Source: Peronospora farinosa (taxonomy: Eukaryota; Oomycota; Peronosporomycetes; Peronosporales; Peronosporaceae). Taken from it: DNA of 64,000 nucleotides. Position 1 is the first letter of the stretch. Every line of letters begins with the position of its first letter. The stretch is from positions 305,514 through 369,513 of the forward strand of contig CANTFK010000993.1 in the NCBI GenBank assembly GCA_947646735.1, written 5' to 3'. Made by a program: the position numbers and the translations under genes. Of the stretch, positions 1 to 37,803 are shown in pieces. The notes under the pieces were generated by a model, which was not told where the DNA came from, made no database searches, and saw nothing but the letters and a program-made list of their open reading frames with translations.

Positions 1-480
1 CGACTGAGAGTGTGGGGAGACCTAAAAGACGCAAGCAAGGCAAAGAAGGCGAACGCCTTGAAGAACGTTGGTGCGCGTAACCTGCAGCTCTTCCTTGCGA
101 AAGGAACAGATGGCGAGTGTATCTCGTCTGGCTTGGAAATCGTGAAGATGCTGAAGAAGGGTGAGAAAACTGCTTATATTAAGCTCTCACGGCGGAAGAA
201 AATGAGCTGCAGGCAGAGAAATTCCTTGTGGACATTCTTGATGAAAATACCCATTACCTGTCTTGTCTCTCTTTCGCTCACGTCCTCTTAATCTGATTAT
301 CCAGCCGAAGCATACCGAAGCGAAGAGAACTTACAGGACATCCTAGGAATATTTTCGCAAGAAAAAGTTATCAATTGAATTTAGTCAGCCTATCAGAAAG
401 GAACAATGGCTTTACATCTTGGCCAAAGTATTGTCATATAAAAACAATCTTATTCGTTTGCAACCAGAAAATTTGTGTCT

Positions 481-495
481 CTTCATTCGAGAATT
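481..495 (+). promoter_or_regulatory. Possible oomycete initiator upstream of the CRN start, repeated in every unit
   Basis: CTTCATTCGAGAATT lies 19-33 bp before the CRN-type ATG. It resembles the oomycete core promoter, an initiator around TCATTY followed by a short A/T-rich flanking element. The same sequence is present in every unit, so the array may carry about 46 copies of a promoter. Spacing and motif agree with the family pattern, but the match to the flanking element is only partial and no transcript evidence is available. Confidence 0.35.
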
Positions 496-513
496 GTCTG
501 GCTCAATAAGATA

Positions 514-868
514 ATGGTAAAGCTGTTCTGCGTCATCGTTGGTATGAAGGAAAGTGCGTTTCCTGTGGACATTGATACGACTGAGAGTGTGGGGAGACCT
601 AAAAGACGCAAGCAAGGCAAAGAAGGCGAACGCCTTGAAGAACGTTGGTGCGCGTAACCTGCAGCTCTTCCTTGCGAAAGGAACAGATGGCGAGTGTATC
701 TCGTCTGGCTTGGCAATCGTGAAGATGCTGAAGAAGGGTGAGAAAACTGCTTATATTAAGCTCTCACGGCGGAAGAAAATGAGCTGCAGGCAGAGAAATT
801 CCTTGTGGACATTCTTGATGAAAATACCCATTACCTGTCTTGTCTCTCTTTCGCTCACGTCCTCTTAA
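514..868 (+). pseudogene. Frameshifted CRN (Crinkler) N-terminal domain, representative unit
   Basis: This is one of 46 equivalent copies. ATG at 514 opens MVKLFCVIVG, the typical start of CRN effectors of plant-pathogenic oomycetes. The first frame stops at 657 after 47 codons. A shift in the G-rich stretch near 585-592 moves the rest of the domain into a second frame, which holds the LFLAK motif at 665-679 and continues to a stop at 868. Near 760-764 the family-like reading moves to a third frame and then ends without the HVLVxxP motif. The LFLAK region is known to mediate CRN delivery into host cells; here translation from the ATG stops 7 bp before it. Every copy in the window shares both shifts, so they preceded amplification. 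A functional full-length effector cannot be made from a single unit. The unit could still be transcribed. Confidence 0.88.
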
Positions 869-3800
869 TCTGATTATCCAGCCGAAGCATACCGAAGCGA
901 AGAGAACTTACAGGACATCCTAGGAATATTTTCGCAAGAAAAAGTTATCAATTGAATTTAGTCAGCCTATCAGAAAGGAACAATGGCTTTACATCTTGGC
1001 CAAAGTATTGTCATATAAAAACAATCTTATTCGTTTGCAAACAGAAAATTCGTGTCTCTTCATTCGAGAATTGTCTGGCTCAATAAGATAATGGTAAAGC
1101 TGTTCTGCGTCATCGTTGGTATGAAGGAAAGTGCGTTTCCTGTGGACATTGATACGACTGAGAGTGTGGGGAGACCTAAAAGACGCAAGCAAGGCAAAGA
1201 AGGCGAACGCCTTGAAGAACGTTGGTGCGCGTAACCTGCAGCTCTTCCTTGCGAAAGGAACAGATGGCGAGTGTATCTCGTCTGGATTGGAAATCGTGAA
1301 GATGCTGAAGAAGGGTGAGAAAACTGCTTATATTAAGCTCTCACGGCGGAAGAAAATGAGCTGCAGGCAGAGAAATTCCTTGTGGACATTCTTGATGAAA
1401 ATACCCATTACCTGTCTTGTCTCTCTTTCGCTCACGTCCTCTTAATCTGATTATCCAGCCGAAGCATACCGAAGCGAAGAGAACTTACAGGACATCCTAG
1501 GAATATTTTCGCAAGAAAAAGTTATCAATTGAATTTAGTCAGCCTATCAGAAAGGAACAATGGCTTTACATCTTGGCCAAAGTATTGTCATATAAAAACA
1601 ATCTTATTCGTTTGCAAACAGAAAATTCGTGTCTCTTCATTCGAGAATTGTCTGGCTCAATAAGATAATGGTAAAGCTGTTCTGCGTCATCGTTGGTATG
1701 AAGGAAAGTGCGTTTCCTGTGGACATTGATACGACTGAGAGTGTGGGGAGACCTAAAAGACGCAAGCAAGGCAAAGAAGGCGAACGCCTTGAAGAACGTT
1801 GGTGCGCGTAACCTGCAGCTCTTCCTTGCGAAAGGAACAGATGGCGAGTGTATCTCGTCTGGCTTGGCAATCGTGAAGATGCTGAAGAAGGGTGAGAAAA
1901 CTGCTTATATTAAGCTCTCACGGCGGAAGAAAATGAGCTGCAGGCAGAGAAATTCCTTGTGGACATTCTTGATGAAAATACCCATTACCTGTCTTGTCTC
2001 TCTTTCGCTCACGTCCTCTTAATCTGATTATCCAGCCGAAGCATACCGAAGCGAAGAGAACTTACAGGACATCCTAGGAATATTTTCGCAAGAAAAAGTT
2101 ATCAATTGAATTTAGTCAGCCTATCAGAAAGGAACAATGGCTTTACATCTTGGCCAAAGTATTGTCATATAAAAACAATCTTATTCGTTTGCAAACAGAA
2201 AATTCGTGTCTCTTCATTCGAGAATTGTCTGGCTCAATAAGATAATGGTAAAGCTGTTCTGCGTCATCGTTGGTATGAAGGAAAGTGCGTTTCCTGTGGA
2301 CATTGATACGACTGAGAGTGTGGGGAGACCTAAAAGACGCAAGCAAGGCAAAGAAGGCGAACGCCTTGAAGAACGTTGGTGCGCGTAACCTGCAGCTCTT
2401 CCTTGCGAAAGGAACAGATGGCGAGTGTATCTCGTCTGGCTTGGAAATCGTGAAGATGCTGAAGAAGGGTGAGAAAACTGCTTATATTAAGCTCTCACGG
2501 CGGAAGAAAATGAGCTGCAGGCAGAGAAATTCCTTGTGGACATTCTTGATGAAAATACCCATTACCTGTCTTGTCTCTCTTTCGCTCACGTCCTCTTAAT
2601 CTGATTATCCAGCCGAAGCATACCGAAGCGAAGAGAACTTACAGGACATCCTAGGAATATTTTCGCAAGAAAAAGTTATCAATTGAATTTAGTCAGCCTA
2701 TCAGAAAGGAACAATGGCTTTACATCTTGGCCAAAGTATTGTCATATAAAAACAATCTTATTCGTTTGCAAACAGAAAATTCGTGTCTCTTCATTCGAGA
2801 ATTGTCTGGCTCAATAAGATAATGGTAAAGCTGTTCTGCGTCATCGTTGGTATGAAGGGAAGTGCGTTTCCTGTGGACATTGATACGACTGAGAGTGTGG
2901 GGAGACCTAAAAGACGCAAGCAAGGCAAAGAAGGCGAACGCCTTGAAGAACGTTGGTGCGCGTAACCTGCAGCTCTTCCTTGCGAAAGGAACAGATGGCG
3001 AGTGTATCTCGTCTGGCTTGGCAATCGTGAAGATGCTGAAGAAGGGTGAGAAAACTGCTTATATTAAGCTCTCACGGCGGAAGAAAATGAGCTGCAGGCA
3101 GAGAAATTCCTTGTGGACATTCTTGATGAAAATACCCATTACCTGTCTTGTCTCTCTTTCGCTCACGTCCTCTTAATCTGATTATCCAGCCGAAGCATAC
3201 CGAAGCGAAGAGAACTTACAGGACATCCTAGGAATATTTTCGCAAGAAAAAGTTATCAATTGAATTTAGTCAGCCTATCAGAAAGGAACAATGGCTTTAC
3301 ATCTTGGCCAAAGTATTGTCATATAAAAACAATCTTATTCGTTTGCAAACAGAAAATTTGTGTCTCTTCATTCGAGAATTGTCTGGCTCAATAAGATAAT
3401 GGTAAAGCTGTTCTGCGTCATCGTTGGTATGAAGGAAAGTGCGTTTCCTGTGGACATTGATACGACTGAGAGTGTGGGGAGACCTAAAAGACGCAAGCAA
3501 GGCAAAGAAGGCGAACGCCTTGAAGAACGTTGGTGCGCGTAACCTGCAGCTCTTCCTTGCGAAAGGAACAGATGGCGAGTGTATCTCGTCTGGCTTGGCA
3601 ATCGTGAAGATGCTGAAGAAGGGTGAGAAAACTGCTTATATTAAGCTCTCACGGCGGAAGAAAATGAGCTGCAGGCAGAGAAATTCCTTGTGGACATTCT
3701 TGATGAAAATACCCATTACCTGTCTTGTCTCTCTTTCGCTCACGTCCTCTTAATCTGATTATCCAGCCGAAGCATACCGAAGCGAAGAGAACTTACAGGA

Positions 3801-6800
3801 CATCCTAGGAATATTTTCGCAAGAAAAAGTTATCAATTGAATTTAGTCAGCCTATCAGAAAGGAACAATGGCTTTACATCTTGGCCAAAGTATTGTCATA
3901 TAAAAACAATCTTATTCGTTTGCAAACAGAAAATTCGTGTCTCTTCATTCGAGAATTGTCTGGCTCAATAAGATAATGGTAAAGCTGTTCTGCGTCATCG
4001 TTGGTATGAAGGAAAGTGCGTTTCCTGTGGACATTGATACGACTGAGAGTGTGGGGAGACCTAAAAGACGCAAGCAAGGCAAAGAAGGCGAACGCCTTGA
4101 AGAACGTTGGTGCGCGTAACCTGCAGCTCTTCCTTGCGAAAGGAACAGATGGCGAGTGTATCTCGTCTGGCTTGGCAATCGTGAAGATGCTGAAGAAGGG
4201 TGAGAAAACTGCTTATATTAAGCTCTCACGGCGGAAGAAAATGAGCTGCAGGCAGAGAAATTCCTTGTGGACATTCTTGATGAAAATACCCATTACCTGT
4301 CTTGTCTCTCTTTCGCTCACGTCCTCTTAATCTGATTAATCCAGCCGAAGCATACCGAAGCGAAGAGAACTTACAGGACATCCTAGGAATATTTTCGCAA
4401 GAAAAAGTTATCAATTGAATTTAGTCAGCCTATCAGAAAGGAACAATGGCTTTACATCTTGGCCAAAGTATTGTCATATAAAAACAATCTTATTCGTTTG
4501 CAAACAGAAAATTCGTGTCTCTTCATTCGAGAATTGTCTGGCTCAATAAGATAATGGTAAAGCTGTTCTGCGTCATCGTTGGTATGAAGGAAAGTGCGTT
4601 TCCTGTGGACATTGATACGACTGAGAGTGTGGGGAGACCTAAAAGACGCAAGCAAGGCAAAGAAGGCGAACGCCTTGAAGAACGTTGGTGCGCGTAACCT
4701 GCAGCTCTTCCTTGCGAAAGGAACAGATGGCGAGTGTATCTCGTCTGGCTTGGCAATCGTGAAGATGCTGAAGAAGGGTGAGAAAACTGCTTATATTAAG
4801 CTCTCACGGCGGAAGAAAATGAGCTGCAGGCAGAGAAATTCCTTGTGGACATTCTTGATGAAAATACCCATTACCTGTCTTGTCTCTCTTTCGCTCACGT
4901 CCTCTTAATCTGATTAATCCAGCCGAAGCATACCGAAGCGAAGAGAACTTACAGGACATCCTAGGAATATTTTCGCAAGAAAAAGTTATCAATTGAATTT
5001 AGTCAGCCTATCAGAAAGGAACAATGGCTTTACATCTTGGCCAAAGTATTGTCATATAAAAACAATCTTATTCGTTTGCAAACAGAAAATTCGTGTCTCT
5101 TCATTCGAGAATTGTCTGGCTCAATAAGATAATGGTAAAGCTGTTCTGCGTCATCGTTGGTATGAAGGAAAGTGCGTTTCCTGTGGACATTGATACGACT
5201 GAGAGTGTGGGGAGACCTAAAAGACGCAAGCAAGGCAAAGAAGGCGAACGCCTTGAAGAACGTTGGTGCGCGTAACCTGCAGCTCTTCCTTGCGAAAGGA
5301 ACAGATGGCGAGTGTATCTCGTCTGGCTTGGCAATCGTGAAGATGCTGAAGAAGGGTGAGAAAACTGCTTATATTAAGCTCTCACGGCGGAAGAAAATGA
5401 GCTGCAGGCAGAGAAATTCCTTGTGGACATTCTTGATGAAAATACCCATTACCTGTCTTGTCTCTCTTTCGCTCACGTCCTCTTAATCTGATTAATCCAG
5501 CCGAAGCATACCGAAGCGAAGAGAACTTACAGGACATCCTAGGAATATTTTCGCAAGAAAAAGTTATCAATTGAATTTAGTCAGCCTATCAGAAAGGAAC
5601 AATGGCTTTACATCTTGGCCAAAGTATTGTCATATAAAAACAATCTTATTCGTTTGCAAACAGAAAATTCGTGTCTCTTCATTCGAGAATTGTCTGGCTC
5701 AATAAGATAATGGTAAAGCTGTTCTGCGTCATCGTTGGTATGAAGGGAAGTGCGTTTCCTGTGGACATTGATACGACTGAGAGTGTGGGGAGACCTAAAA
5801 GACGCAAGCAAGGCAAAGAAGGCGAACGCCTTGAAGAACGTTGGTGCGCGTAACCTGCAGCTCTTCCTTGCGAAAGGAACAGATGGCGAGTGTATCTCGT
5901 CTGGCTTGGAAATCGTGAAGATGCTGAAGAAGGGTGAGAAAACTGCTTATATTAAGCTCTCACGGCGGAAGAAAATGAGCTGCAGGCAGAGAAATTCCTT
6001 GTGGACATTCTTGATGAAAATACCCATTACCTGTCTTGTCTCTCTTTCGCTCACGTCCTCTTAATCTGATTATCCAGCCGAAGCATACCGAAGCGAAGAG
6101 AACTTACAGGACATCCTAGGAATATTTTCGCAAGAAAAAGTTATCAATTGAATTTAGTCAGCCTATCAGAAAGGAACAATGGCTTTACATCTTGGCCAAA
6201 GTATTGTCATATAAAAACAATCTTATTCGTTTGCAAACAGAAAATTCGTGTCTCTTCATTCGAGAATTGTCTGGCTCAATAAGATAATGGTAAAGCTGTT
6301 CTGCGTCATCGTTGGTATGAAGGGAAGTGCGTTTCCTGTGGACATTGATACGACTGAGAGTGTGGGGAGACCTAAAAGACGCAAGCAAGGCAAAGAAGGC
6401 GAACGCCTTGAAGAACGTTGGTGCGCGTAACCTGCAGCTCTTCCTTGCGAAAGGAACAGATGGCGAGTGTATCTCGTCTGGATTGGAAATCGTGAAGATG
6501 CTGAAGAAGGGTGAGAAAACTGCTTATATTAAGCTCTCACGGCGGAAGAAAATGAGCTGCAGGCAGAGAAATTCCTTGTGGACATTCTTGATGAAAATAC
6601 CCATTACCTGTCTTGTCTCTCTTTCGCTCACGTCCTCTTAATCTGATTAATCCAGCCGAAGCATACCGAAGCGAAGAGAACTTACAGGACATCCTAGGAA
6701 TATTTTCGCAAGAAAAAGTTATCAATTGAATTTAGTCAGCCTATCAGAAAGGAACAATGGCTTTACATCTTGGCCAAAGTATTGTCATATAAAAACAATC

Positions 6801-9800
6801 TTATTCGTTTGCAAACAGAAAATTCGTGTCTCTTCATTCGAGAATTGTCTGGCTCAATAAGATAATGGTAAAGCTGTTCTGCGTCATCGTTGGTATGAAG
6901 GGAAGTGCGTTTCCTGTGGACATTGATACGACTGAGAGTGTGGGGAGACCTAAAAGACGCAAGCAAGGCAAAGAAGGCGAACGCCTTGAAGAACGTTGGT
7001 GCGCGTAACCTGCAGCTCTTCCTTGCGAAAGGAACAGATGGCGAGTGTATCTCGTCTGGCTTGGCAATCGTGAAGATGCTGAAGAAGGGTGAGAAAACTG
7101 CTTATATTAAGCTCTCACGGCGGAAGAAAATGAGCTGCAGGCAGAGAAATTCCTTGTGGACATTCTTGATGAAAATACCCATTACCTGTCTTGTCTCTCT
7201 TTCGCTCACGTCCTCTTAATCTGATTATCCAGCCGAAGCATACCGAAGCGAAGAGAACTTACAGGACATCCTAGGAATATTTTCGCAAGAAAAAGTTATC
7301 AATTGAATTTAGTCAGCCTATCAGAAAGGAACAATGGCTTTACATCTTGGCCAAAGTATTGTCATATAAAAACAATCTTATTCGTTTGCAACCAGAAAAT
7401 TCGTGTCTCTTCATTCGAGAATTGTCTGGCTCAATAAGATAATGGTAAAGCTGTTCTGCGTCATCGTTGGTATGAAGGAAAGTGCGTTTCCTGTGGACAT
7501 TGATACGACTGAGAGTGTGGGGAGACCTAAAAGACGCAAGCAAGGCAAAGAAGGCGAACGCCTTGAAGAACGTTGGTGCGCGTAACCTGCAGCTCTTCCT
7601 TGCGAAAGGAACAGATGGCGAGTGTATCTCGTCTGGATTGGAAATCGTGAAGATGCTGAAGAAGGGTGAGAAAACTGCTTATATTAAGCTCTCACGGCGG
7701 AAGAAAATGAGCTGCAGGCAGAGAAATTCCTTGTGGACATTCTTGATGAAAATACCCATTACCTGTCTTGTCTCTCTTTCGCTCACGTCCTCTTAATCTG
7801 ATTATCCAGCCGAAGCATACCGAAGCGAAGAGAACTTACAGGACATCCTAGGAATATTTTCGCAAGAAAAAGTTATCAATTGAATTTAGTCAGCCTATCA
7901 GAAAGGAACAATGGCTTTACATCTTGGCCAAAGTATTGTCATATAAAAACAATCTTATTCGTTTGCAAACAGAAAATTCGTGTCTCTTCATTCGAGAATT
8001 GTCTGGCTCAATAAGATAATGGTAAAGCTGTTCTGCGTCATCGTTGGTATGAAGGGAAGTGCGTTTCCTGTGGACATTGATACGACTGAGAGTGTGGGGA
8101 GACCTAAAAGACGCAAGCAAGGCAAAGAAGGCGAACGCCTTGAAGAACGTTGGTGCGCGTAACCTGCAGCTCTTCCTTGCGAAAGGAACAGATGGCGAGT
8201 GTATCTCGTCTGGCTTGGCAATCGTGAAGATGCTGAAGAAGGGTGAGAAAACTGCTTATATTAAGCTCTCACGGCGGAAGAAAATGAGCTGCAGGCAGAG
8301 AAATTCCTTGTGGACATTCTTGATGAAAATACCCATTACCTGTCTTGTCTCTCTTTCGCTCACGTCCTCTTAATCTGATTAATCCAGCCGAAGCATACCG
8401 AAGCGAAGAGAACTTACAGGACATCCTAGGAATATTTTCGCAAGAAAAAGTTATCAATTGAATTTAGTCAGCCTATCAGAAAGGAACAATGGCTTTACAT
8501 CTTGGCCAAAGTATTGTCATATAAAAACAATCTTATTCGTTTGCAAACAGAAAATTCGTGTCTCTTCATTCGAGAATTGTCTGGCTCAATAAGATAATGG
8601 TAAAGCTGTTCTGCGTCATCGTTGGTATGAAGGGAAGTGCGTTTCCTGTGGACATTGATACGACTGAGAGTGTGGGGAGACCTAAAAGACGCAAGCAAGG
8701 CAAAGAAGGCGAACGCCTTGAAGAACGTTGGTGCGCGTAACCTGCAGCTCTTCCTTGCGAAAGGAACAGATGGCGAGTGTATCTCGTCTGGCTTGGCAAT
8801 CGTGAAGATGCTGAAGAAGGGTGAGAAAACTGCTTATATTAAGCTCTCACGGCGGAAGAAAATGAGCTGCAGGCAGAGAAATTCCTTGTGGACATTCTTG
8901 ATGAAAATACCCATTACCTGTCTTGTCTCTCTTTCGCTCACGTCCTCTTAATCTGATTAATCCAGCCGAAGCATACCGAAGCGAAGAGAACTTACAGGAC
9001 ATCCTAGGAATATTTTCGCAAGAAAAAGTTATCAATTGAATTTAGTCAGCCTATCAGAAAGGAACAATGGCTTTACATCTTGGCCAAAGTATTGTCATAT
9101 AAAAACAATCTTATTCGTTTGCAACCAGAAAATTCGTGTCTCTTCATTCGAGAATTGTCTGGCTCAATAAGATAATGGTAAAGCTGTTCTGCGTCATCGT
9201 TGGTATGAAGGGAAGTGCGTTTCCTGTGGACATTGATACGACTGAGAGTGTGGGGAGACCTAAAAGACGCAAGCAAGGCAAAGAAGGCGAACGCCTTGAA
9301 GAACGTTGGTGCGCGTAACCTGCAGCTCTTCCTTGCGAAAGGAACAGATGGCGAGTGTATCTCGTCTGGCTTGGCAATCGTGAAGATGCTGAAGAAGGGT
9401 GAGAAAACTGCTTATATTAAGCTCTCACGGCGGAAGAAAATGAGCTGCAGGCAGAGAAATTCCTTGTGGACATTCTTGATGAAAATACCCATTACCTGTC
9501 TTGTCTCTCTTTCGCTCACGTCCTCTTAATCTGATTAATCCAGCCGAAGCATACCGAAGCGAAGAGAACTTACAGGACATCCTAGGAATATTTTCGCAAG
9601 AAAAAGTTATCAATTGAATTTAGTCAGCCTATCAGAAAGGAACAATGGCTTTACATCTTGGCCAAAGTATTGTCATATAAAAACAATCTTATTCGTTTGC
9701 AAACAGAAAATTCGTGTCTCTTCATTCGAGAATTGTCTGGCTCAATAAGATAATGGTAAAGCTGTTCTGCGTCATCGTTGGTATGAAGGAAAGTGCGTTT

Positions 9801-12800
9801 CCTGTGGACATTGATACGACTGAGAGTGTGGGGAGACCTAAAAGACGCAAGCAAGGCAAAGAAGGCGAACGCCTTGAAGAACGTTGGTGCGCGTAACCTG
9901 CAGCTCTTCCTTGCGAAAGGAACAGATGGCGAGTGTATCTCGTCTGGCTTGGAAATCGTGAAGATGCTGAAGAAGGGTGAGAAAACTGCTTATATTAAGC
10001 TCTCACGGCGGAAGAAAATGAGCTGCAGGCAGAGAAATTCCTTGTGGACATTCTTGATGAAAATACCCATTACCTGTCTTGTCTCTCTTTCGCTCACGTC
10101 CTCTTAATCTGATTAATCCAGCCGAAGCATACCGAAGCGAAGAGAACTTACAGGACATCCTAGGAATATTTTCGCAAGAAAAAGTTATCAATTGAATTTA
10201 GTCAGCCTATCAGAAAGGAACAATGGCTTTACATCTTGGCCAAAGTATTGTCATATAAAAACAATCTTATTCGTTTGCAAACAGAAAATTCGTGTCTCTT
10301 CATTCGAGAATTGTCTGGCTCAATAAGATAATGGTAAAGCTGTTCTGCGTCATCGTTGGTATGAAGGGAAGTGCGTTTCCTGTGGACATTGATACGACTG
10401 AGAGTGTGGGGAGACCTAAAAGACGCAAGCAAGGCAAAGAAGGCGAACGCCTTGAAGAACGTTGGTGCGCGTAACCTGCAGCTCTTCCTTGCGAAAGGAA
10501 CAGATGGCGAGTGTATCTCGTCTGGCTTGGCAATCGTGAAGATGCTGAAGAAGGGTGAGAAAACTGCTTATATTAAGCTCTCACGGCGGAAGAAAATGAG
10601 CTGCAGGCAGAGAAATTCCTTGTGGACATTCTTGATGAAAATACCCATTACCTGTCTTGTCTCTCTTTCGCTCACGTCCTCTTAATCTGATTAATCCAGC
10701 CGAAGCATACCGAAGCGAAGAGAACTTACAGGACATCCTAGGAATATTTTCGCAAGAAAAAGTTATCAATTGAATTTAGTCAGCCTATCAGAAAGGAACA
10801 ATGGCTTTACATCTTGGCCAAAGTATTGTCATATAAAAACAATCTTATTCGTTTGCAAACAGAAAATTCGTGTCTCTTCATTCGAGAATTGTCTGGCTCA
10901 ATAAGATAATGGTAAAGCTGTTCTGCGTCATCGTTGGTATGAAGGGAAGTGCGTTTCCTGTGGACATTGATACGACTGAGAGTGTGGGGAGACCTAAAAG
11001 ACGCAAGCAAGGCAAAGAAGGCGAACGCCTTGAAGAACGTTGGTGCGCGTAACCTGCAGCTCTTCCTTGCGAAAGGAACAGATGGCGAGTGTATCTCGTC
11101 TGGCTTGGCAATCGTGAAGATGCTGAAGAAGGGTGAGAAAACTGCTTATATTAAGCTCTCACGGCGGAAGAAAATGAGCTGCAGGCAGAGAAATTCCTTG
11201 TGGACATTCTTGATGAAAATACCCATTACCTGTCTTGTCTCTCTTTCGCTCACGTCCTCTTAATCTGATTAATCCAGCCGAAGCATACCGAAGCGAAGAG
11301 AACTTACAGGACATCCTAGGAATATTTTCGCAAGAAAAAGTTATCAATTGAATTTAGTCAGCCTATCAGAAAGGAACAATGGCTTTACATCTTGGCCAAA
11401 GTATTGTCATATAAAAACAATCTTATTCGTTTGCAACCAGAAAATTCGTGTCTCTTCATTCGAGAATTGTCTGGCTCAATAAGATAATGGTAAAGCTGTT
11501 CTGCGTCATCGTTGGTATGAAGGGAAGTGCGTTTCCTGTGGACATTGATACGACTGAGAGTGTGGGGAGACCTAAAAGACGCAAGCAAGGCAAAGAAGGC
11601 GAACGCCTTGAAGAACGTTGGTGCGCGTAACCTGCAGCTCTTCCTTGCGAAAGGAACAGATGGCGAGTGTATCTCGTCTGGCTTGGCAATCGTGAAGATG
11701 CTGAAGAAGGGTGAGAAAACTGCTTATATTAAGCTCTCACGGCGGAAGAAAATGAGCTGCAGGCAGAGAAATTCCTTGTGGACATTCTTGATGAAAATAC
11801 CCATTACCTGTCTTGTCTCTCTTTCGCTCACGTCCTCTTAATCTGATTAATCCAGCCGAAGCATACCGAAGCGAAGAGAACTTACAGGACATCCTAGGAA
11901 TATTTTCGCAAGAAAAAGTTATCAATTGAATTTAGTCAGCCTATCAGAAAGGAACAATGGCTTTACATCTTGGCCAAAGTATTGTCATATAAAAACAATC
12001 TTATTCGTTTGCAAACAGAAAATTCGTGTCTCTTCATTCGAGAATTGTCTGGCTCAATAAGATAATGGTAAAGCTGTTCTGCGTCATCGTTGGTATGAAG
12101 GGAAGTGCGTTTCCTGTGGACATTGATACGACTGAGAGTGTGGGGAGACCTAAAAGACGCAAGCAAGGCAAAGAAGGCGAACGCCTTGAAGAACGTTGGT
12201 GCGCGTAACCTGCAGCTCTTCCTTGCGAAAGGAACAGATGGCGAGTGTATCTCGTCTGGCTTGGCAATCGTGAAGATGCTGAAGAAGGGTGAGAAAACTG
12301 CTTATATTAAGCTCTCACGGCGGAAGAAAATGAGCTGCAGGCAGAGAAATTCCTTGTGGACATTCTTGATGAAAATACCCATTACCTGTCTTGTCTCTCT
12401 TTCGCTCACGTCCTCTTAATCTGATTATCCAGCCGAAGCATACCGAAGCGAAGAGAACTTACAGGACATCCTAGGAATATTTTCGCAAGAAAAAGTTATC
12501 AATTGAATTTAGTCAGCCTATCAGAAAGGAACAATGGCTTTACATCTTGGCCAAAGTATTGTCATATAAAAACAATCTTATTCGTTTGCAAACAGAAAAT
12601 TCGTGTCTCTTCATTCGAGAATTGTCTGGCTCAATAAGATAATGGTAAAGCTGTTCTGCGTCATCGTTGGTATGAAGGGAAGTGCGTTTCCTGTGGACAT
12701 TGATACGACTGAGAGTGTGGGGAGACCTAAAAGACGCAAGCAAGGCAAAGAAGGCGAACGCCTTGAAGAACGTTGGTGCGCGTAACCTGCAGCTCTTCCT

Positions 12801-15800: not shown

Positions 15801-18800
15801 GCTGCAGGCAGAGAAATTCCTTGTGGACATTCTTGATGAAAATACCCATTACCTGTCTTGTCTCTCTTTCGCTCACGTCCTCTTAATCTGATTAATCCAG
15901 CCGAAGCATACCGAAGCGAAGAGAACTTACAGGACATCCTAGGAATATTTTCGCAAGAAAAAGTTATCAATTGAATTTAGTCAGCCTATCAGAAAGGAAC
16001 AATGGCTTTACATCTTGGCCAAAGTATCGTCATATAAAAACAATCTTATTCGTTTGCAAACAGAAAATTCGTGTCTCTTCATTCGAGAATTGTCTGGCTC
16101 AATAAGATAATGGTAAAGCTGTTCTGCGTCATCGTTGGTATGAAGGGAAGTGCGTTTCCTGTGGACATTGATACGACTGAGAGTGTGGGGAGACCTAAAA
16201 GACGCAAGCAAGGCAAAGAAGGCGAACGCCTTGAAGAACGTTGGTGCGCGTAACCTGCAGCTCTTCCTTGCGAAAGGAACAGATGGCGAGTGTATCTCGT
16301 CTGGCTTGGCAATCGTGAAGATGCTGAAGAAGGGTGAGAAAACTGCTTATATTAAGCTCTCACGGCGGAAGAAAATGAGCTGCAGGCAGAGAAATTCCTT
16401 GTGGACATTCTTGATGAAAATACCCATTACCTGTCTTGTCTCTCTTTCGCTCACGTCCTCTTAATCTGATTAATCCAGCCGAAGCATACCGAAGCGAAGA
16501 GAACTTACAGGACATCCTAGGAATATTTTCGCAAGAAAAAGTTATCAATTGAATTTAGTCAGCCTATCAGAAAGGAACAATGGCTTTACATCTTGGCCAA
16601 AGTATCGTCATATAAAAACAATCTTATTCGTTTGCAAACAGAAAATTCGTGTCTCTTCATTCGAGAATTGTCTGGCTCAATAAGATAATGGTAAAGCTGT
16701 TCTGCGTCATCGTTGGTATGAAGGGAAGTGCGTTTCCTGTGGACATTGATACGACTGAGAGTGTGGGGAGACCTAAAAGACGCAAGCAAGGCAAAGAAGG
16801 CGAACGCCTTGAAGAACGTTGGTGCGCGTAACCTGCAGCTCTTCCTTGCGAAAGGAACAGATGGCGAGTGTATCTCGTCTGGCTTGGCAATCGTGAAGAT
16901 GCTGAAGAAGGGTGAGAAAACTGCTTATATTAAGCTCTCACGGCGGAAGAAAATGAGCTGCAGGCAGAGAAATTCCTTGTGGACATTCTTGATGAAAATA
17001 CCCATTACCTGTCTTGTCTCTCTTTCGCTCACGTCCTCTTAATCTGATTAATCCAGCCGAAGCATACCGAAGCGAAGAGAACTTACAGGACATCCTAGGA
17101 ATATTTTCGCAAGAAAAAGTTATCAATTGAATTTAGTCAGCCTATCAGAAAGGAACAATGGCTTTACATCTTGGCCAAAGTATCGTCATATAAAAACAAT
17201 CTTATTCGTTTGCAAACAGAAAATTCGTGTCTCTTCATTCGAGAATTGTCTGGCTCAATAAGATAATGGTAAAGCTGTTCTGCGTCATCGTTGGTATGAA
17301 GGGAAGTGCGTTTCCTGTGGACATTGATACGACTGAGAGTGTGGGGAGACCTAAAAGACGCAAGCAAGGCAAAGAAGGCGAACGCCTTGAAGAACGTTGG
17401 TGCGCGTAACCTGCAGCTCTTCCTTGCGAAAGGAACAGATGGCGAGTGTATCTCGTCTGGCTTGGCAATCGTGAAGATGCTGAAGAAGGGTGAGAAAACT
17501 GCTTATATTAAGCTCTCACGGCGGAAGAAAATGAGCTGCAGGCAGAGAAATTCCTTGTGGACATTCTTGATGAAAATACCCATTACCTGTCTTGTCTCTC
17601 TTTCGCTCACGTCCTCTTAATCTGATTAATCCAGCCGAAGCATACCGAAGCGAAGAGAACTTACAGGACATCCTAGGAATATTTTCGCAAGAAAAAGTTA
17701 TCAATTGAATTTAGTCAGCCTATCAGAAAGGAACAATGGCTTTACATCTTGGCCAAAGTATCGTCATATAAAAACAATCTTATTCGTTTGCAAACAGAAA
17801 ATTCGTGTCTCTTCATTCGAGAATTGTCTGGCTCAATAAGATAATGGTAAAGCTGTTCTGCGTCATCGTTGGTATGAAGGGAAGTGCGTTTCCTGTGGAC
17901 ATTGATACGACTGAGAGTGTGGGGAGACCTAAAAGACGCAAGCAAGGCAAAGAAGGCGAACGCCTTGAAGAACGTTGGTGCGCGTAACCTGCAGCTCTTC
18001 CTTGCGAAAGGAACAGATGGCGAGTGTATCTCGTCTGGCTTGGCAATCGTGAAGATGCTGAAGAAGGGTGAGAAAACTGCTTATATTAAGCTCTCACGGC
18101 GGAAGAAAATGAGCTGCAGGCAGAGAAATTCCTTGTGGACATTCTTGATGAAAATACCCATTACCTGTCTTGTCTCTCTTTCGCTCACGTCCTCTTAATC
18201 TGATTAATCCAGCCGAAGCATACCGAAGCGAAGAGAACTTACAGGACATCCTAGGAATATTTTCGCAAGAAAAAGTTATCAATTGAATTTAGTCAGCCTA
18301 TCAGAAAGGAACAATGGCTTTACATCTTGGCCAAAGTATCGTCATATAAAAACAATCTTATTCGTTTGCAAACAGAAAATTCGTGTCTCTTCATTCGAGA
18401 ATTGTCTGGCTCAATAAGATAATGGTAAAGCTGTTCTGCGTCATCGTTGGTATGAAGGGAAGTGCGTTTCCTGTGGACATTGATACGACTGAGAGTGTGG
18501 GGAGACCTAAAAGACGCAAGCAAGGCAAAGAAGGCGAACGCCTTGAAGAACGTTGGTGCGCGTAACCTGCAGCTCTTCCTTGCGAAAGGAACAGATGGCG
18601 AGTGTATCTCGTCTGGCTTGGCAATCGTGAAGATGCTGAAGAAGGGTGAGAAAACTGCTTATATTAAGCTCTCACGGCGGAAGAAAATGAGCTGCAGGCA
18701 GAGAAATTCCTTGTGGACATTCTTGATGAAAATACCCATTACCTGTCTTGTCTCTCTTTCGCTCACGTCCTCTTAATCTGATTAATCCAGCCGAAGCATA

Positions 18801-21800
18801 CCGAAGCGAAGAGAACTTACAGGACATCCTAGGAATATTTTCGCAAGAAAAAGTTATCAATTGAATTTAGTCAGCCTATCAGAAAGGAACAATGGCTTTA
18901 CATCTTGGCCAAAGTATCGTCATATAAAAACAATCTTATTCGTTTGCAAACAGAAAATTCGTGTCTCTTCATTCGAGAATTGTCTGGCTCAATAAGATAA
19001 TGGTAAAGCTGTTCTGCGTCATCGTTGGTATGAAGGGAAGTGCGTTTCCTGTGGACATTGATACGACTGAGAGTGTGGGGAGACCTAAAAGACGCAAGCA
19101 AGGCAAAGAAGGCGAACGCCTTGAAGAACGTTGGTGCGCGTAACCTGCAGCTCTTCCTTGCGAAAGGAACAGATGGCGAGTGTATCTCGTCTGGCTTGGC
19201 AATCGTGAAGATGCTGAAGAAGGGTGAGAAAACTGCTTATATTAAGCTCTCACGGCGGAAGAAAATGAGCTGCAGGCAGAGAAATTCCTTGTGGACATTC
19301 TTGATGAAAATACCCATTACCTGTCTTGTCTCTCTTTCGCTCACGTCCTCTTAATCTGATTAATCCAGCCGAAGCATACCGAAGCGAAGAGAACTTACAG
19401 GACATCCTAGGAATATTTTCGCAAGAAAAAGTTATCAATTGAATTTAGTCAGCCTATCAGAAAGGAACAATGGCTTTACATCTTGGCCAAAGTATCGTCA
19501 TATAAAAACAATCTTATTCGTTTGCAAACAGAAAATTCGTGTCTCTTCATTCGAGAATTGTCTGGCTCAATAAGATAATGGTAAAGCTGTTCTGCGTCAT
19601 CGTTGGTATGAAGGGAAGTGCGTTTCCTGTGGACATTGATACGACTGAGAGTGTGGGGAGACCTAAAAGACGCAAGCAAGGCAAAGAAGGCGAACGCCTT
19701 GAAGAACGTTGGTGCGCGTAACCTGCAGCTCTTCCTTGCGAAAGGAACAGATGGCGAGTGTATCTCGTCTGGCTTGGCAATCGTGAAGATGCTGAAGAAG
19801 GGTGAGAAAACTGCTTATATTAAGCTCTCACGGCGGAAGAAAATGAGCTGCAGGCAGAGAAATTCCTTGTGGACATTCTTGATGAAAATACCCATTACCT
19901 GTCTTGTCTCTCTTTCGCTCACGTCCTCTTAATCTGATTAATCCAGCCGAAGCATACCGAAGCGAAGAGAACTTACAGGACATCCTAGGAATATTTTCGC
20001 AAGAAAAAGTTATCAATTGAATTTAGTCAGCCTATCAGAAAGGAACAATGGCTTTACATCTTGGCCAAAGTATCGTCATATAAAAACAATCTTATTCGTT
20101 TGCAAACAGAAAATTCGTGTCTCTTCATTCGAGAATTGTCTGGCTCAATAAGATAATGGTAAAGCTGTTCTGCGTCATCGTTGGTATGAAGGGAAGTGCG
20201 TTTCCTGTGGACATTGATACGACTGAGAGTGTGGGGAGACCTAAAAGACGCAAGCAAGGCAAAGAAGGCGAACGCCTTGAAGAACGTTGGTGCGCGTAAC
20301 CTGCAGCTCTTCCTTGCGAAAGGAACAGATGGCGAGTGTATCTCGTCTGGCTTGGCAATCGTGAAGATGCTGAAGAAGGGTGAGAAAACTGCTTATATTA
20401 AGCTCTCACGGCGGAAGAAAATGAGCTGCAGGCAGAGAAATTCCTTGTGGACATTCTTGATGAAAATACCCATTACCTGTCTTGTCTCTCTTTCGCTCAC
20501 GTCCTCTTAATCTGATTAATCCAGCCGAAGCATACCGAAGCGAAGAGAACTTACAGGACATCCTAGGAATATTTTCGCAAGAAAAAGTTATCAATTGAAT
20601 TTAGTCAGCCTATCAGAAAGGAACAATGGCTTTACATCTTGGCCAAAGTATCGTCATATAAAAACAATCTTATTCGTTTGCAAACAGAAAATTCGTGTCT
20701 CTTCATTCGAGAATTGTCTGGCTCAATAAGATAATGGTAAAGCTGTTCTGCGTCATCGTTGGTATGAAGGGAAGTGCGTTTCCTGTGGACATTGATACGA
20801 CTGAGAGTGTGGGGAGACCTAAAAGACGCAAGCAAGGCAAAGAAGGCGAACGCCTTGAAGAACGTTGGTGCGCGTAACCTGCAGCTCTTCCTTGCGAAAG
20901 GAACAGATGGCGAGTGTATCTCGTCTGGCTTGGCAATCGTGAAGATGCTGAAGAAGGGTGAGAAAACTGCTTATATTAAGCTCTCACGGCGGAAGAAAAT
21001 GAGCTGCAGGCAGAGAAATTCCTTGTGGACATTCTTGATGAAAATACCCATTACCTGTCTTGTCTCTCTTTCGCTCACGTCCTCTTAATCTGATTAATCC
21101 AGCCGAAGCATACCGAAGCGAAGAGAACTTACAGGACATCCTAGGAATATTTTCGCAAGAAAAAGTTATCAATTGAATTTAGTCAGCCTATCAGAAAGGA
21201 ACAATGGCTTTACATCTTGGCCAAAGTATCGTCATATAAAAACAATCTTATTCGTTTGCAAACAGAAAATTCGTGTCTCTTCATTCGAGAATTGTCTGGC
21301 TCAATAAGATAATGGTAAAGCTGTTCTGCGTCATCGTTGGTATGAAGGGAAGTGCGTTTCCTGTGGACATTGATACGACTGAGAGTGTGGGGAGACCTAA
21401 AAGACGCAAGCAAGGCAAAGAAGGCGAACGCCTTGAAGAACGTTGGTGCGCGTAACCTGCAGCTCTTCCTTGCGAAAGGAACAGATGGCGAGTGTATCTC
21501 GTCTGGCTTGGCAATCGTGAAGATGCTGAAGAAGGGTGAGAAAACTGCTTATATTAAGCTCTCACGGCGGAAGAAAATGAGCTGCAGGCAGAGAAATTCC
21601 TTGTGGACATTCTTGATGAAAATACCCATTACCTGTCTTGTCTCTCTTTCGCTCACGTCCTCTTAATCTGATTAATCCAGCCGAAGCATACCGAAGCGAA
21701 GAGAACTTACAGGACATCCTAGGAATATTTTCGCAAGAAAAAGTTATCAATTGAATTTAGTCAGCCTATCAGAAAGGAACAATGGCTTTACATCTTGGCC

Positions 21801-24800
21801 AAAGTATCGTCATATAAAAACAATCTTATTCGTTTGCAAACAGAAAATTCGTGTCTCTTCATTCGAGAATTGTCTGGCTCAATAAGATAATGGTAAAGCT
21901 GTTCTGCGTCATCGTTGGTATGAAGGGAAGTGCGTTTCCTGTGGACATTGATACGACTGAGAGTGTGGGGAGACCTAAAAGACGCAAGCAAGGCAAAGAA
22001 GGCGAACGCCTTGAAGAACGTTGGTGCGCGTAACCTGCAGCTCTTCCTTGCGAAAGGAACAGATGGCGAGTGTATCTCGTCTGGCTTGGCAATCGTGAAG
22101 ATGCTGAAGAAGGGTGAGAAAACTGCTTATATTAAGCTCTCACGGCGGAAGAAAATGAGCTGCAGGCAGAGAAATTCCTTGTGGACATTCTTGATGAAAA
22201 TACCCATTACCTGTCTTGTCTCTCTTTCGCTCACGTCCTCTTAATCTGATTAATCCAGCCGAAGCATACCGAAGCGAAGAGAACTTACAGGACATCCTAG
22301 GAATATTTTCGCAAGAAAAAGTTATCAATTGAATTTAGTCAGCCTATCAGAAAGGAACAATGGCTTTACATCTTGGCCAAAGTATCGTCATATAAAAACA
22401 ATCTTATTCGTTTGCAAACAGAAAATTCGTGTCTCTTCATTCGAGAATTGTCTGGCTCAATAAGATAATGGTAAAGCTGTTCTGCGTCATCGTTGGTATG
22501 AAGGGAAGTGCGTTTCCTGTGGACATTGATACGACTGAGAGTGTGGGGAGACCTAAAAGACGCAAGCAAGGCAAAGAAGGCGAACGCCTTGAAGAACGTT
22601 GGTGCGCGTAACCTGCAGCTCTTCCTTGCGAAAGGAACAGATGGCGAGTGTATCTCGTCTGGCTTGGCAATCGTGAAGATGCTGAAGAAGGGTGAGAAAA
22701 CTGCTTATATTAAGCTCTCACGGCGGAAGAAAATGAGCTGCAGGCAGAGAACTTCCTTGTGGACATTCTTGATGAAAATACCCATTACCTGTCTTGTCTC
22801 TCTTTCGCTCACGTCCTCTTAATCTGATTAATCCAGCCGAAGCATACCGAAGCGAAGAGAACTTACAGGACATCCTAGGAATATTTTCGCAAGAAAAAGT
22901 TATCAATTGAATTTAGTCAGCCTATCAGAAAGGAACAATGGCTTTACATCTTGGCCAAAGTATCGTCATATAAAAACAATCTTATTCGTTTGCAAACAGA
23001 AAATTCGTGTCTCTTCATTCGAGAATTGTCTGGCTCAATAAGATAATGGTAAAGCTGTTCTGCGTCATCGTTGGTATGAAGGGAAGTGCGTTTCCTGTGG
23101 ACATTGATACGACTGAGAGTGTGGGGAGACCTAAAAGACGCAAGCAAGGCAAAGAAGGCGAACGCCTTGAAGAACGTTGGTGCGCGTAACCTGCAGCTCT
23201 TCCTTGCGAAAGGAACAGATGGCGAGTGTATCTCGTCTGGCTTGGCAATCGTGAAGATGCTGAAGAAGGGTGAGAAAACTGCTTATATTAAGCTCTCACG
23301 GCGGAAGAAAATGAGCTGCAGGCAGAGAAATTCCTTGTGGACATTCTTGATGAAAATACCCATTACCTGTCTTGCCTCTCTTTCGCTCACGTCCTCTTAA
23401 TCTGATTAATCCAGCCGAAGCATACCGAAGCGAAGAGAACTTACAGGACATCCTAGGAATATTTTCGCAAGAAAAAGTTATCAATTGAATTTAGTCAGCC
23501 TATCAGAAAGGAACAATGGCTTTACATCTTGGCCAAAGTATCGTCATATAAAAACAATCTTATTCGTTTGCAAACAGAAAATTCGTGTCTCTTCATTCGA
23601 GAATTGTCTGGCTCAATAAGATAATGGTAAAGCTGTTCTGCGTCATCGTTGGTATGAAGGGAAGTGCGTTTCCTGTGGACATTGATACGACTGAGAGTGT
23701 GGGGAGACCTAAAAGACGCAAGCAAGGCAAAGAAGGCGAACGCCTTGAAGAACGTTGGTGCGCGTAACCTGCAGCTCTTCCTTGCGAAAGGAACAGATGG
23801 CGAGTGTATCTCGTCTGGCTTGGCAATCGTGAAGATGCTGAAGAAGGGTGAGAAAACTGCTTATATTAAGCTCTCACGGCGGAAGAAAATGAGCTGCAGG
23901 CAGAGAAATTCCTTGTGGACATTCTTGATGAAAATACCCATTACCTGTCTTGTCTCTCTTTCGCTCACGTCCTCTTAATCTGATTAATCCAGCCGAAGCA
24001 TACCGAAGCGAAGAGAACTTACAGGACATCCTAGGAATATTTTCGCAAGAAAAAGTTATCAATTGAATTTAGTCAGCCTATCAGAAAGGAACAATGGCTT
24101 TACATCTTGGCCAAAGTATCGTCATATAAAAACAATCTTATTCGTTTGCAAACAGAAAATTCGTGTCTCTTCATTCGAGAATTGTCTGGCTCAATAAGAT
24201 AATGGTAAAGCTGTTCTGCGTCATCGTTGGTATGAAGGGAAGTGCGTTTCCTGTGGACATTGATACGACTGAGAGTGTGGGGAGACCTAAAAGACGCAAG
24301 CAAGGCAAAGAAGGCGAACGCCTTGAAGAACGTTGGTGCGCGTAACCTGCAGCTCTTCCTTGCGAAAGGAACAGATGGCGAGTGTATCTCGTCTGGCTTG
24401 GCAATCGTGAAGATGCTGAAGAAGGGTGAGAAAACTGCTTATATTAAGCTCTCACGGCGGAAGAAAATGAGCTGCAGGCAGAGAAATTCCTTGTGGACAT
24501 TCTTGATGAAAATACCCATTACCTGTCTTGTCTCTCTTTCGCTCACGTCCTCTTAATCTGATTAATCCAGCCGAAGCATACCGAAGCGAAGAGAACTTAC
24601 AGGACATCCTAGGAATATTTTCGCAAGAAAAAGTTATCAATTGAATTTAGTCAGCCTATCAGAAAGGAACAATGGCTTTACATCTTGGCCAAAGTATCGT
24701 CATATAAAAACAATCTTATTCGTTTGCAACCAGAAAATTCGTGTCTCTTCATTCGAGAATTGTCTGGCTCAATAAGATAATGGTAAAGCTGTTCTGCGTC

Positions 24801-26513
24801 ATCGTTGGTATGAAGGGAAGTGCGTTTCCTGTGGACATTGATACGACTGAGAGTGTGGGGAGACCTAAAAGACGCAAGCAAGGCAAAGAAGGCGAACGCC
24901 TTGAAGAACGTTGGTGCGCGTAACCTGCAGCTCTTCCTTGCGAAAGGAACAGATGGCGAGTGTATCTCGTCTGGCTTGGCAATCGTGAAGATGCTGAAGA
25001 AGGGTGAGAAAACTGCTTATATTAAGCTCTCACGGCGGAAGAAAATGAGCTGCAGGCAGAGAAATTCCTTGTGGACATTCTTGATGAAAATACCCATTAC
25101 CTGTCTTGCCTCTCTTTCGCTCACGTCCTCTTAATCTGATTAATCCAGCCGAAGCATACCGAAGCGAAGAGAACTTACAGGACATCCTAGGAATATTTTC
25201 GCAAGAAAAAGTTATCAATTGAATTTAGTCAGCCTATCAGAAAGGAACAATGGCTTTACATCTTGGCCAAAGTATCGTCATATAAAAACAATCTTATTCG
25301 TTTGCAAACAGAAAATTCGTGTCTCTTCATTCGAGAATTGTCTGGCTCAATAAGATAATGGTAAAGCTGTTCTGCGTCATCGTTGGTATGAAGGGAAGTG
25401 CGTTTCCTGTGGACATTGATACGACTGAGAGTGTGGGGAGACCTAAAAGACGCAAGCAAGGCAAAGAAGGCGAACGCCTTGAAGAACGTTGGTGCGCGTA
25501 ACCTGCAGCTCTTCCTTGCGAAAGGAACAGATGGCGAGTGTCTCTCGTCTGGCTTGGCAATCGTGAAGATGCTGAAGAAGGGTGAGAAAACTGCTTATAT
25601 TAAGCTCTCACGGCGGAAGAAAATGAGCTGCAGGCAGAGAACTTCCTTGTGGACATTCTTGATGAAAATACCCATTACCTGTCTTGCCTCTCTTTCGCTC
25701 ACGTCCTCTTAATCTGATTAATCCAGCCGAAGCATACCGAAGCGAAGAGAACTTACAGGACATCCTAGGAATATTTTCGCAAGAAAAAGTTATCAATTGA
25801 ATTTAGTCAGCCTATCAGAAAGGAACAATGGCTTTACATCTTGGCCAAAGTATCGTCATATAAAAACAATCTTATTCGTTTGCAAACAGAAAATTCGTGT
25901 CTCTTCATTCGAGAATTGTCTGGCTCAATAAGATAATGGTAAAGCTGTTCTGCGTCATCGTTGGTATGAAGGAAAGTGCGTTTCCTGTGGACATTGATAC
26001 GACTGAGAGTGTGGGGAGACCTAAAAGACGCAAGCAAGGCAAAGAAGGCGAACGCCTTGAAGAACGTTGGTGCGCGTAACCTGCAGCTCTTCCTTGCGAA
26101 AGGAACAGATGGCGAGTGTATCTCGTCTGGCTTGGAAATCGTGAAGATGCTGAAGAAGGGTGAGAAAACTGCTTATAATAAGCTCTCACGGCGGAAGAAA
26201 ATGAGCTGCAGGCAGAGAAATTCCTTGTGGACATTCTTGATGAAAATACCCATTACCTGTCTTGCCTCTCTTTCGCTCACGTCCTCTTAATCTGATTAAT
26301 CCAGCCGAAGCATACCGAAGCGAAGAGAACTTACAGGACATCCTAGGAATATTTTCGCAAGAAAAAGTTATCAATTGAATTTAGTCAGCCTATCAGAAAG
26401 GAACAATGGCTTTACATCTTGGCCAAAGTATCGTCATATAAAAACAATCTTATTCGTTTGCAAACAGAAAATTCGTGTCTCTTCATTCGAGAATTGTCTG
26501 GCTCAATAAGATA

Positions 26514-27423
26514 ATGGTAAAGCTGTTCTGCGTCATCGTTGGTATGAAGGAAAGTGCGTTTCCTGTGGACATTGATACGACTGAGAGTGTGGGGAGACCT
26601 AAAAGACGCAAGCAAGGCAAAGAAGGCGAACGCCTTGAAGAACGTTGGTGCGCGTAACCTGCAGCTCTTCCTTGCGAAAGGAACAGATGGCGAGTGTCTC
26701 TCGTCTGGCTTGGAAATCGTGAAGATGCTGAAGAAGGGTGAGAAAACTGCTTATATTAAGCTCTCACGGCGGAAGAAAATGAGCTGCAGGCAGAGAAATT
26801 CCTTGTGGACATTCTTAATGAAAATACCCTCCCATCGCGTGGCTACATCCACGTACTAATCAAGTTGCCTAAACCGATCGTTTATGCTGCTTCGCATGTA
26901 AGGAATGTGCAACTTTTTACAGCCATTGCGTTAAACAAGACAAAAAAGTGAGGAATGCTTTTTACTGGAAGATTGGAAAGTAAACGCTGTGCACAAGATT
27001 CCATTGATCTGAAAATTTATGAGCAGCTTGAGTGGATGCATTCAAAGGAAGAAATTCTTTTGGTGAATGGAAGATACGCTAATTGTATCGCTGCTATTGG
27101 ACGGTTGGCTTCATGAGTCTTCTTGTCTGGCAGACAAGAAGAGTATCGTGGTAGGCTCGTCGGGTATTGGCAAGTCGACGCTGTTGTGCGTGATAGCTTT
27201 TCATCTCGTCTTCAAGCACAAGAAGAATGTGCTGGTATACCAAGGATTGAGCAAATATTATCAGGAGAACTGTCCCTTTTATCTGGGTTACGAAGATGGC
27301 AAAGTCGTGCAGTTTGTAGTGGACGAATGCAATGACCAGAATGCGATTAACATATATAAAGTGCTTGTCCGCAAACAGGGCAAACATAAGAGTAGCAGGC
27401 TAATATCTACACGCATCCGTTGA
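26514..27423 (+). pseudogene. Terminal CRN copy joined to the degraded CRN body (HVLIKLP and P-loop)
   Basis: The last array unit starts at ATG 26514 and, after 26829, does not return to the repeat. It runs into sequence that continues a CRN gene. HVLIKLP at 26850-26870 matches the HVLVxxP motif that closes the CRN N-terminal region. An in-frame TGA follows near 26949 and another stop near 27114. A new frame from 27067 to 27423 encodes GSSGIGKST, a Walker A P-loop, followed by residues of the NTPase-like segment seen in many CRN proteins. The gene is broken by the two array-type frameshifts, at least two stops and a further frame change, and its 3' end is missing. A retroelement LTR begins about 75 bp downstream, so transposition may have removed the rest. 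This looks like the parental locus of the array units. Confidence 0.82.
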
Positions 27424-27988: not shown

Positions 27989-27991
27989 TTT

Positions 27992-37801: not shown

Positions 37802-37803
37802 AG

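What the first reader, a model, noticed from the sequence alone, without database searches (positions are those of the whole stretch)
1..26829. Giant tandem array of a broken Crinkler effector head
At least 46 consecutive 577/578-bp units each carry a CRN upstream region, ATG and LFLAK domain, with the same two frameshifts. CRN genes are normally dispersed and diversify by C-terminal shuffling. A satellite-like array made of a dead 5' end plus promoter is, to my knowledge, not a described arrangement. It may be a source of small RNAs that act in trans on functional CRN genes, a recombination reservoir for the conserved head, or a passive satellite.
Basis: partly seen in the sequence, partly recalled or inferred. 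Interest (0 to 1): 0.9.

Follow-up and report, generated by a model that had tools for sequence, protein, structure and literature searches.

The report
Tandem array of Crinkler gene heads
A downy-mildew genome, likely Peronospora farinosa, carries 64 near-identical head-to-tail copies of the upstream region and first part of a Crinkler effector gene, all broken in the same way; proteins of the spinach downy mildew read across the same joints in open frames, so the array is likely an old block of head-only genes that decayed here while recombination likely kept its copies alike.

Summary
The array is real and larger than reported: 64 units of 577/578 bp over 36,968 bp, starting 10.1 kb left of the window. 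Each unit holds a Crinkler (CRN) upstream region and N-terminal head; in the last unit two frame pieces match Pfam PF20147. The unit lies at one locus (64 of 64 matches). The last unit runs on into a decayed CRN body; the boundary lies 21 bp before the HVLVxxP-type motif, a described CRN recombination point. Units are 99.5% alike with shuffled variants (33 of 55 site pairs), pointing to unequal exchange or conversion. It is not alone: a separate 846-bp CRN-head array (at least 34 heads) sits on two contig ends. Of seven proteins found, four (three named P. effusa) read across the same unit-to-unit joint in one frame; two have gene numbers near that of the window's PH-domain gene. So this is probably a shared block of head-only CRN cassettes, broken in all units here. 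A small-RNA role is plausible, untested. A donor role for other CRN genes is not supported (longest shared exact run 32 bp).

The parts
1..26829 (+). Window part of array 1 (46 units with their ATG in the window, plus a partial one at the left edge); the whole array is C273:295375-332342, 64 units
249..825 (+). One example unit (u19) in duplication phase: upstream part 249-513, head from ATG 514
483..494 (+). Word TCATTCGAGAAT, 31 bp before the ATG; exact in 64 of 64 units and, with up to 2 mismatches, in 39 of 53 CRN upstream regions examined (51 dispersed loci plus one unit of each array); predicted core promoter element
   Evidence: that it is a promoter is inferred
26248..26829 (+). Last unit (u64), one of the most variant units
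26514..26654 (+). First frame piece of the CRN head (PF20147 profile 1-31)
26548..26856 (+). Second frame piece of the CRN head, with LQLFLAK (PF20147 profile 26-78)
26760..26948 (+). Third piece, again in the first frame: end of the head and, past the array edge, HVLIKLP at 26850-26870; no Pfam match of its own
26830..27423 (+). Decayed CRN body relic beyond the array; piece 27067-27423 carries a P-loop-like stretch with weak Pfam matches only, all below cut-off
27448..30855 (+). Gypsy-like retrotransposon pieces directly after the relic (LTR-like repeated DNA, gag- and pol-like frames); labels from reading the frames, no family search

Best explanation
The array consists of 64 head-to-tail copies of a Crinkler upstream region and N-terminal head, broken in every unit here, and it likely arose as a tandem duplication inside one Crinkler gene, was likely inherited from the common ancestor with Peronospora effusa as a block of head-only genes, and has likely lost its coding frames in this genome while unequal exchange likely kept the copies uniform. 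Shown: 64 units, identical frame structure, one locus, mosaic variants, a right-edge unit continuous with a CRN body relic, a unit boundary 21 bp before the HVLVxxP-type motif with a 4-bp word (ACCC) shared by left edge, joint and right edge, an identical upstream word in all units, and P. effusa proteins that read across the same joint.
For: Array anatomy and copy number; one locus only, 64 of 64 matches of a 37-bp word on C273. PF20147 in two frame pieces. Right-edge continuity into HVLIKLP and a P-loop-like relic. Concerted evolution: mean identity 99.46%, 11 shared two-state sites, 33 of 55 site pairs with all four combinations, neighbours more alike than in shuffled order (1.6 against 3.12 differences, minimum of 1000 shuffles 2.62), 31 haplotypes. 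Variable columns are about equally dense upstream and in the head (7 of 266 and 8 of 312, one of the latter the trimmed edge; counted by hand), so no sign of coding constraint now. Cross-species joint: of the 7 proteins found with the frame piece 26548-26856, P0037 and P0039 (KXD40_000957, KXD40_000989, P. effusa; 3 and 2 members) have residues 103-146 matching window 26244-26375 at 91%, just across the unit boundary at 26248; P0038 (source not named, 27 members) residues 83-118 match 25604-25711 at 97% across the boundary at 25670; P0035 (P. effusa, 12 members) matches 25437-25709 at 84% across it; P0040 (P. effusa) matches the right-edge unit (26760-26864, 89%) and then the relic (26873-26947, 64%). 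The PH-domain protein of window 56364-59774 is 99% identical to KXD40_001002; P0001, P0037 and P0039 all list a longest contig of 8417896. Recurrence: array 2, from a different CRN head. Literature: HVLV motif as CRN recombination breakpoint (PMC3726527, passages); near-identical effector clusters in P. effusa (PMC11540230, sections 10-11).
Against: No P. effusa DNA could be read, so unit number, order and position there rest on protein tails and locus-tag numbers. P0036 and P0041 do not read across the joint. P0035 joins the joint in the same shifted frame as the window's second piece, and P0036 begins in the window's shifted frame, so breaks of this kind also occur outside this genome. The joint-reading frames may be mere gene predictions. 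A reverse-strand frame of the unit found no homologue at E 0.001 or better. A 4-bp shared word can be chance. Expression, chromatin and small RNAs were not measured. Up to 7,879 bp repeat exactly inside the array, so the number of units in its uniform stretch (u44-u56) depends on read length.
Confidence: 0.62

Rival explanations
1. Passive satellite that never coded: a CRN pseudogene's 5' end was amplified, and the open frames in P. effusa are only units not yet broken, or over-predicted.
For: The right-edge body is decayed here and P0040's reading of that part matches it at only 64%; no excess conservation of head over upstream; P0035 and P0036 show shifted frames outside this genome too; array 2 is also broken, with a TAG in 34 of 34 scored copies.
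Against: Four of the seven proteins found, in clusters of 3, 2, 12 and 27 members, keep one frame from the head across the joint, more than I would expect if all units had been dead from the start.
Confidence: 0.2
2. Small-RNA source acting in trans: the array is transcribed, converted to double-stranded RNA and diced to 21-nt RNAs that lower expression of functional CRN genes, and is kept for that.
For: In P. infestans 21-nt small RNAs are the main class on CRN genes (PMC3522703, abstract and passages); [quoted passage not shown] All 64 units keep the upstream word. With up to 2 mismatches a 21-nt window of array 1 fits 41 of 54 dispersed CRN loci (18 of 27 with a frame of 300 aa or more) and of array 2 18 of 54, reversed control 0 (two representative units per array).
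Against: Exact 21-mers are shared with only 8 of 54 dispersed loci (array 1, all units) and 3 of 54 (array 2, 31 units). No reverse-strand copy of the 37-bp word was found. No small-RNA data for this species were available.
Confidence: 0.13
3. Promoter decoy: about 100 copies of a CRN-type upstream region in two arrays titrate a CRN-specific transcription factor.
For: Word exact in 64 of 64 units and within 2 mismatches in 31 of 31 array-2 units.
Against: I know of no factor for this word; it was picked by eye from the same sequences; the head would not be needed for a decoy.
Confidence: 0.03
4. Assembly expansion: a few real units multiplied by the assembler.
For: Exact repeats up to 7,879 bp inside the array; 13 units u44-u56 identical at all shared sites.
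Against: 31 distinct unit haplotypes in a non-periodic order; array 2 was broken between contigs, not expanded; the same joint exists in proteins of P. effusa records.
Confidence: 0.02

Closest known systems
RXLR effector gene clusters of Peronospora effusa (30-111 near-identical copies, chromosome 6; others on chromosome 13; PMC11540230, sections 10-11)
   Same: Near-identical clustered effector copies, copy-number change, nearby LTR-Gypsy elements, some copies frame-broken.
   Different: Here the repeated piece is only upstream region plus head of a CRN gene, 577/578 bp, with no complete gene in any unit of this genome.
Oomycete satellite DNA (PpSat1/PpSat2 of Phytophthora parasitica, PMC7290008; AeSat families, PMC8780586; passages of both)
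   Same: Tandem arrays with many copies; PpSat sequences are reported as transcribed mainly as small RNAs.
   Different: In the passages seen they are not described as effector-derived; the present unit is a recognisable CRN 5' end and is confined to one locus.
CRN pseudogenes and clusters of Phytophthora (PMC3804510, PMC3726527, PMC9584435; passages)
   Same: Many CRN copies are pseudogenes, clustered, recombining at the HVLV motif, and rich in 21-nt small RNAs.
   Different: In those passages they are genes and pseudogenes in clusters, not a contiguous short-period array of the 5' end.
tRNA tandem arrays of P. infestans (271 copies, 513-nt unit; PMC9584435, passages)
   Same: Similar unit length; an array on a single chromosome.
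   Different: RNA genes; Rfam (gathering score) and tRNA scans of this window find none.

Membership tests
CRN (Crinkler) effector gene | N-terminal Crinkler domain (PF20147) | tested here: met
   Two frame pieces of the last unit above the curated cut-off; the whole-genome search, which scored 150 of 224 candidates, lists 62 array-1 heads, all over the cut-off
CRN (Crinkler) effector gene | LFLAK motif | tested here: met
   LQLFLAK in the frame pieces of the units translated; no variable column of the 64-unit alignment was checked for it separately
CRN (Crinkler) effector gene | HVLVxxP motif and C-terminal effector domain | tested here: not met
   Units end 21 bp before HVLIKLP; only the right edge has it, followed by a decayed P-loop-like relic
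CRN (Crinkler) effector gene | One continuous reading frame through the head | tested here: not met
   Two breaks, with the same frame structure in 64 of 64 units; open-frame relatives exist in P. effusa
CRN (Crinkler) effector gene | Secretion signal | not tested
   No signal-peptide tool was used
Satellite DNA | Many head-to-tail copies homogenised by concerted evolution | tested here: met
   64 units, 99.46% mean identity, mosaic variants
Satellite DNA | Heterochromatic, centromeric or subtelomeric, often at several loci | tested here: inconclusive
   One locus only; chromatin and chromosome position not testable
Effector gene cluster of the P. effusa RXLR type | Each copy is a complete gene | tested here: not met
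   No unit of array 1 has a complete gene
Small-RNA-generating locus | Mapped 21-nt or 25/26-nt small RNAs | not testable with these tools
   No small-RNA reads available

The most novel reading that the evidence does not exclude
CRN 5' cassettes are repeatedly turned into self-homogenising arrays in Peronospora (two separate arrays of 64 and at least 34 heads): head-only CRN gene blocks that switch, by concerted spread of frame breaks, from a high-dosage source of head-only proteins to a non-coding 21-nt small-RNA factory that tunes the rest of the CRN family in trans.
Probability: 0.12. Interest if true: 0.85.

Novelty: new variant of a known kind. Interest (0 to 1): 0.6.

Why it matters
Effector families are thought to evolve by duplicating and shuffling whole genes. 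Here only the upstream region and the head are amplified, with a boundary next to the family's described recombination point, and a pair of frame breaks is shared by all 64 copies while relatives in P. effusa read on in one frame. That gives a natural test of how concerted evolution can switch a whole gene block off, and of whether CRN tandem repeats feed the abundant CRN small RNAs of oomycetes. A secretome search that starts from annotated genes and open frames of 70 aa or more, as described for P. effusa (PMC12844528, methods passage), would probably pass over such an array in its present state.

Tried and rejected
Recombination reservoir: none of 54 dispersed CRN loci shares an exact run above 32 bp with array 1 or above 31 bp with array 2. 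Structural RNA array: no Rfam family at gathering score and no tRNA in the window. The oomycete Inr pattern as I recall it (YTCANTYY): no match in the array units; the family's own word was used instead, chosen by eye from the same sequences, so its count is descriptive. Presence of the array elsewhere through a reverse-strand frame: no hit at E 0.001. Three of 54 dispersed loci were dropped from the upstream comparison because no ATG lay in the expected place or too little upstream DNA was held (53 of 56 rows kept, two of them array units). The whole-genome PF20147 search scored 150 of 224 candidates, so counts from it are lower bounds; of the 150, 54 are dispersed, 62 lie in array 1 and 34 in array 2. 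The exact 21-mer count for array 2 is 3 of 54 with all 31 aligned units and 1 of 54 with two representative units. Literature: ten searches; no title or abstract start in the listings describes a CRN-head tandem array. Ten papers were opened: passages only for PMC12844528, PMC3522703, PMC3804510, PMC7290008, PMC9430622, PMC9584435, PMC8780586, PMC3726527 and PMC6264045; passages and sections 10 and 11 for PMC11540230.

Full report
What is there. One unit (window 511-1088) matches 47 head-to-tail places on the + strand of the window, 1 to 26829, at 98.96-100% identity. The window is C273:305514-369513, the right end of a 369,513-bp contig in a 46.85-Mb assembly of 274 contigs. Fetching the left neighbour shows the array starting at C273:295375, 10,139 bp left of the window. 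Cut at the joint, there are 64 units, with 35 spacings of 578 and 28 of 577 bp. A 37-bp word of the upstream part, with up to 2 mismatches, occurs 64 times in the genome, all on C273 and on one strand.

Which genome. The 1137-aa PH-domain protein at window 56364-59774 is 99% identical to P. effusa KXD40_001002. P0041, named Peronospora farinosa with a longest contig of 94,325 bp, is encoded letter for letter twice on C239 of this assembly, whose length is 94,325. So the assembly is most likely the one deposited as P. farinosa, a very close relative of the spinach downy mildew P. effusa.

Anatomy of the unit. From the joint: about 266 bp of upstream DNA, then an ATG and about 312 bp of head. 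In the last unit Pfam PF20147 covers the head in two frame pieces (window 26514-26654 and 26548-26856), both above the cut-off; the end of the head returns to the first frame, in a piece without a Pfam match of its own that matches P. effusa CRN proteins. The only indel columns among the 64 units are one upstream and one trimmed edge, so every unit has the same broken head. The word TCATTCGAGAAT occurs in 64 of 64 units (31 bp before the ATG at window 483-494); with up to 2 mismatches it occurs in 39 of 53 CRN upstream regions of this genome (18 of 27 with a frame of 300 aa or more), against a mean of 0.11 of 53 in single-base shuffles. It is likely part of the core promoter; this was not tested, and the word was chosen by eye from the same set of related genes.

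Edges. The last unit runs on without a break into HVLIKLP (window 26850-26870) and a decayed P-loop-like stretch to 27423, followed by Gypsy-like DNA. So the array is the 5' end of one CRN gene, repeated in front of its own relic. The array edge (26829) lies 21 bp before the HVLI motif; HVLVVVP is described as the CRN recombination breakpoint (PMC3726527, passages). The left edge, the joint and the right edge share ACCC, consistent with a duplication at short homology, though 4 bp can be chance.

How it evolves. Mean pairwise identity is 99.46%; 15 of 578 columns vary, 11 of them with a variant in at least two units. In 33 of 55 pairs of shared sites all four combinations occur, and neighbours differ at 1.6 sites against 3.12 in shuffled order (minimum of 1000 shuffles 2.62). 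That is what repeated unequal exchange and conversion would give. The most variant units are at the two ends. Upstream and head vary about equally (7 of 266, 8 of 312 columns, one of these the trimmed edge), so no coding constraint is visible now.

Not alone. C177 from 115642 to the contig end at 143170 and C224:155-2102 near the contig start hold a second array on the - strand with an 846-bp unit: 32 plus 2 head anchors, 31 full units aligned, 99.49% mean identity. Its head is a different CRN head: about 71% identical to array 1 over some 200 bp, sharing no 18-mer with it, with a TAG in 34 of 34 scored copies. The assembly breaks inside it, so its size is a lower bound. C239 holds four copies of a 10.43-kb block with a CRN head (the fourth 9.2 kb long), 99.7-99.8% identical to the copy used as query.

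Relatives in P. effusa. The 103-aa frame piece 26548-26856 found 7 proteins. Four have tails that leave the head and read into the next unit's upstream DNA: P0037 and P0039 (KXD40_000957 and KXD40_000989), P0035 (12 members) and P0038 (27 members, organism not named). P0040 matches the right-edge unit and then the relic. P0036 and P0041 do not reach the joint. P0035 crosses the joint in the same shifted frame as the window's second piece, and P0036 begins in a shifted frame, so frame departures of this kind occur outside this genome as well; P0037, P0038, P0039 and P0040 read the head in one frame. The head-to-tail joint is therefore not private to this assembly. The numbers 000957, 000989 and 001002 (the PH-domain gene of this window) suggest the same chromosomal place, but I could not read that DNA.

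Function. Published P. infestans data make CRN genes and pseudogenes prominent sources of 21-nt small RNAs, and tandem repeats among the strongest sources per Mb (PMC3522703, PMC3804510, passages). Against a strong trans role by perfect pairing, exact 21-mers of array 1 occur in only 8 of 54 dispersed CRN loci and of array 2 in 3 of 54; with up to 2 mismatches, 41 and 18 of 54 (two representative units per array). As a donor of CRN heads the array leaves no trace (longest exact run 32 bp). My reading: a head-only CRN block older than the species split, decayed here, now most likely passive, possibly a small-RNA source.

Limits. Copy number in the uniform stretch u44-u56 rests on read length (longest exact repeat 7,879 bp). 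No expression, small-RNA or chromatin data. No genome-wide census of tandem arrays was possible (refusals).

Noticed in passing
C273:289740-293515 and window 41456-45229: A 3.78-kb block with an HSP70-like gene (label from reading the frame) lies in inverted copies, 99.3% identical, on the two sides of the array and its Gypsy-like elements, so the segment between could invert.
   Followed up: partly
window 44116-46593 and 47560-50037: Inverted 2.5-kb pair, 99.8% identical, each with a 248-aa frame that ends in a membrane-like stretch.
   Followed up: partly
window 30854-38418; C273:294298-294912: A Gypsy-like element with 615-bp ends 99.5% identical (likely a recent insertion); a lone copy of the same end (91%) lies 463 bp left of the array start.
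   Followed up: partly
window 35569-36028: An 87-bp repeat, 5.3 copies, inside the frame of the Gypsy-like element.
   Followed up: no
C177:115642-143170 and C224:155-2102 (L021, L022, L029, L031, L032): Second CRN-head array, 846-bp unit, broken by the assembly between two contigs.
   Followed up: yes
C239:1-40447 (L016-L019, L030): Four near-identical 10.43-kb tandem copies (the fourth incomplete), with a CRN head and Gypsy-like frames.
   Followed up: partly
C263:196775, 211781, 226773: Three CRN heads about 15.0 kb apart, suggesting a further large-unit tandem duplication.
   Followed up: no
window 63248-63494: A 20-bp repeat, 12 copies, near the contig end.
   Followed up: no
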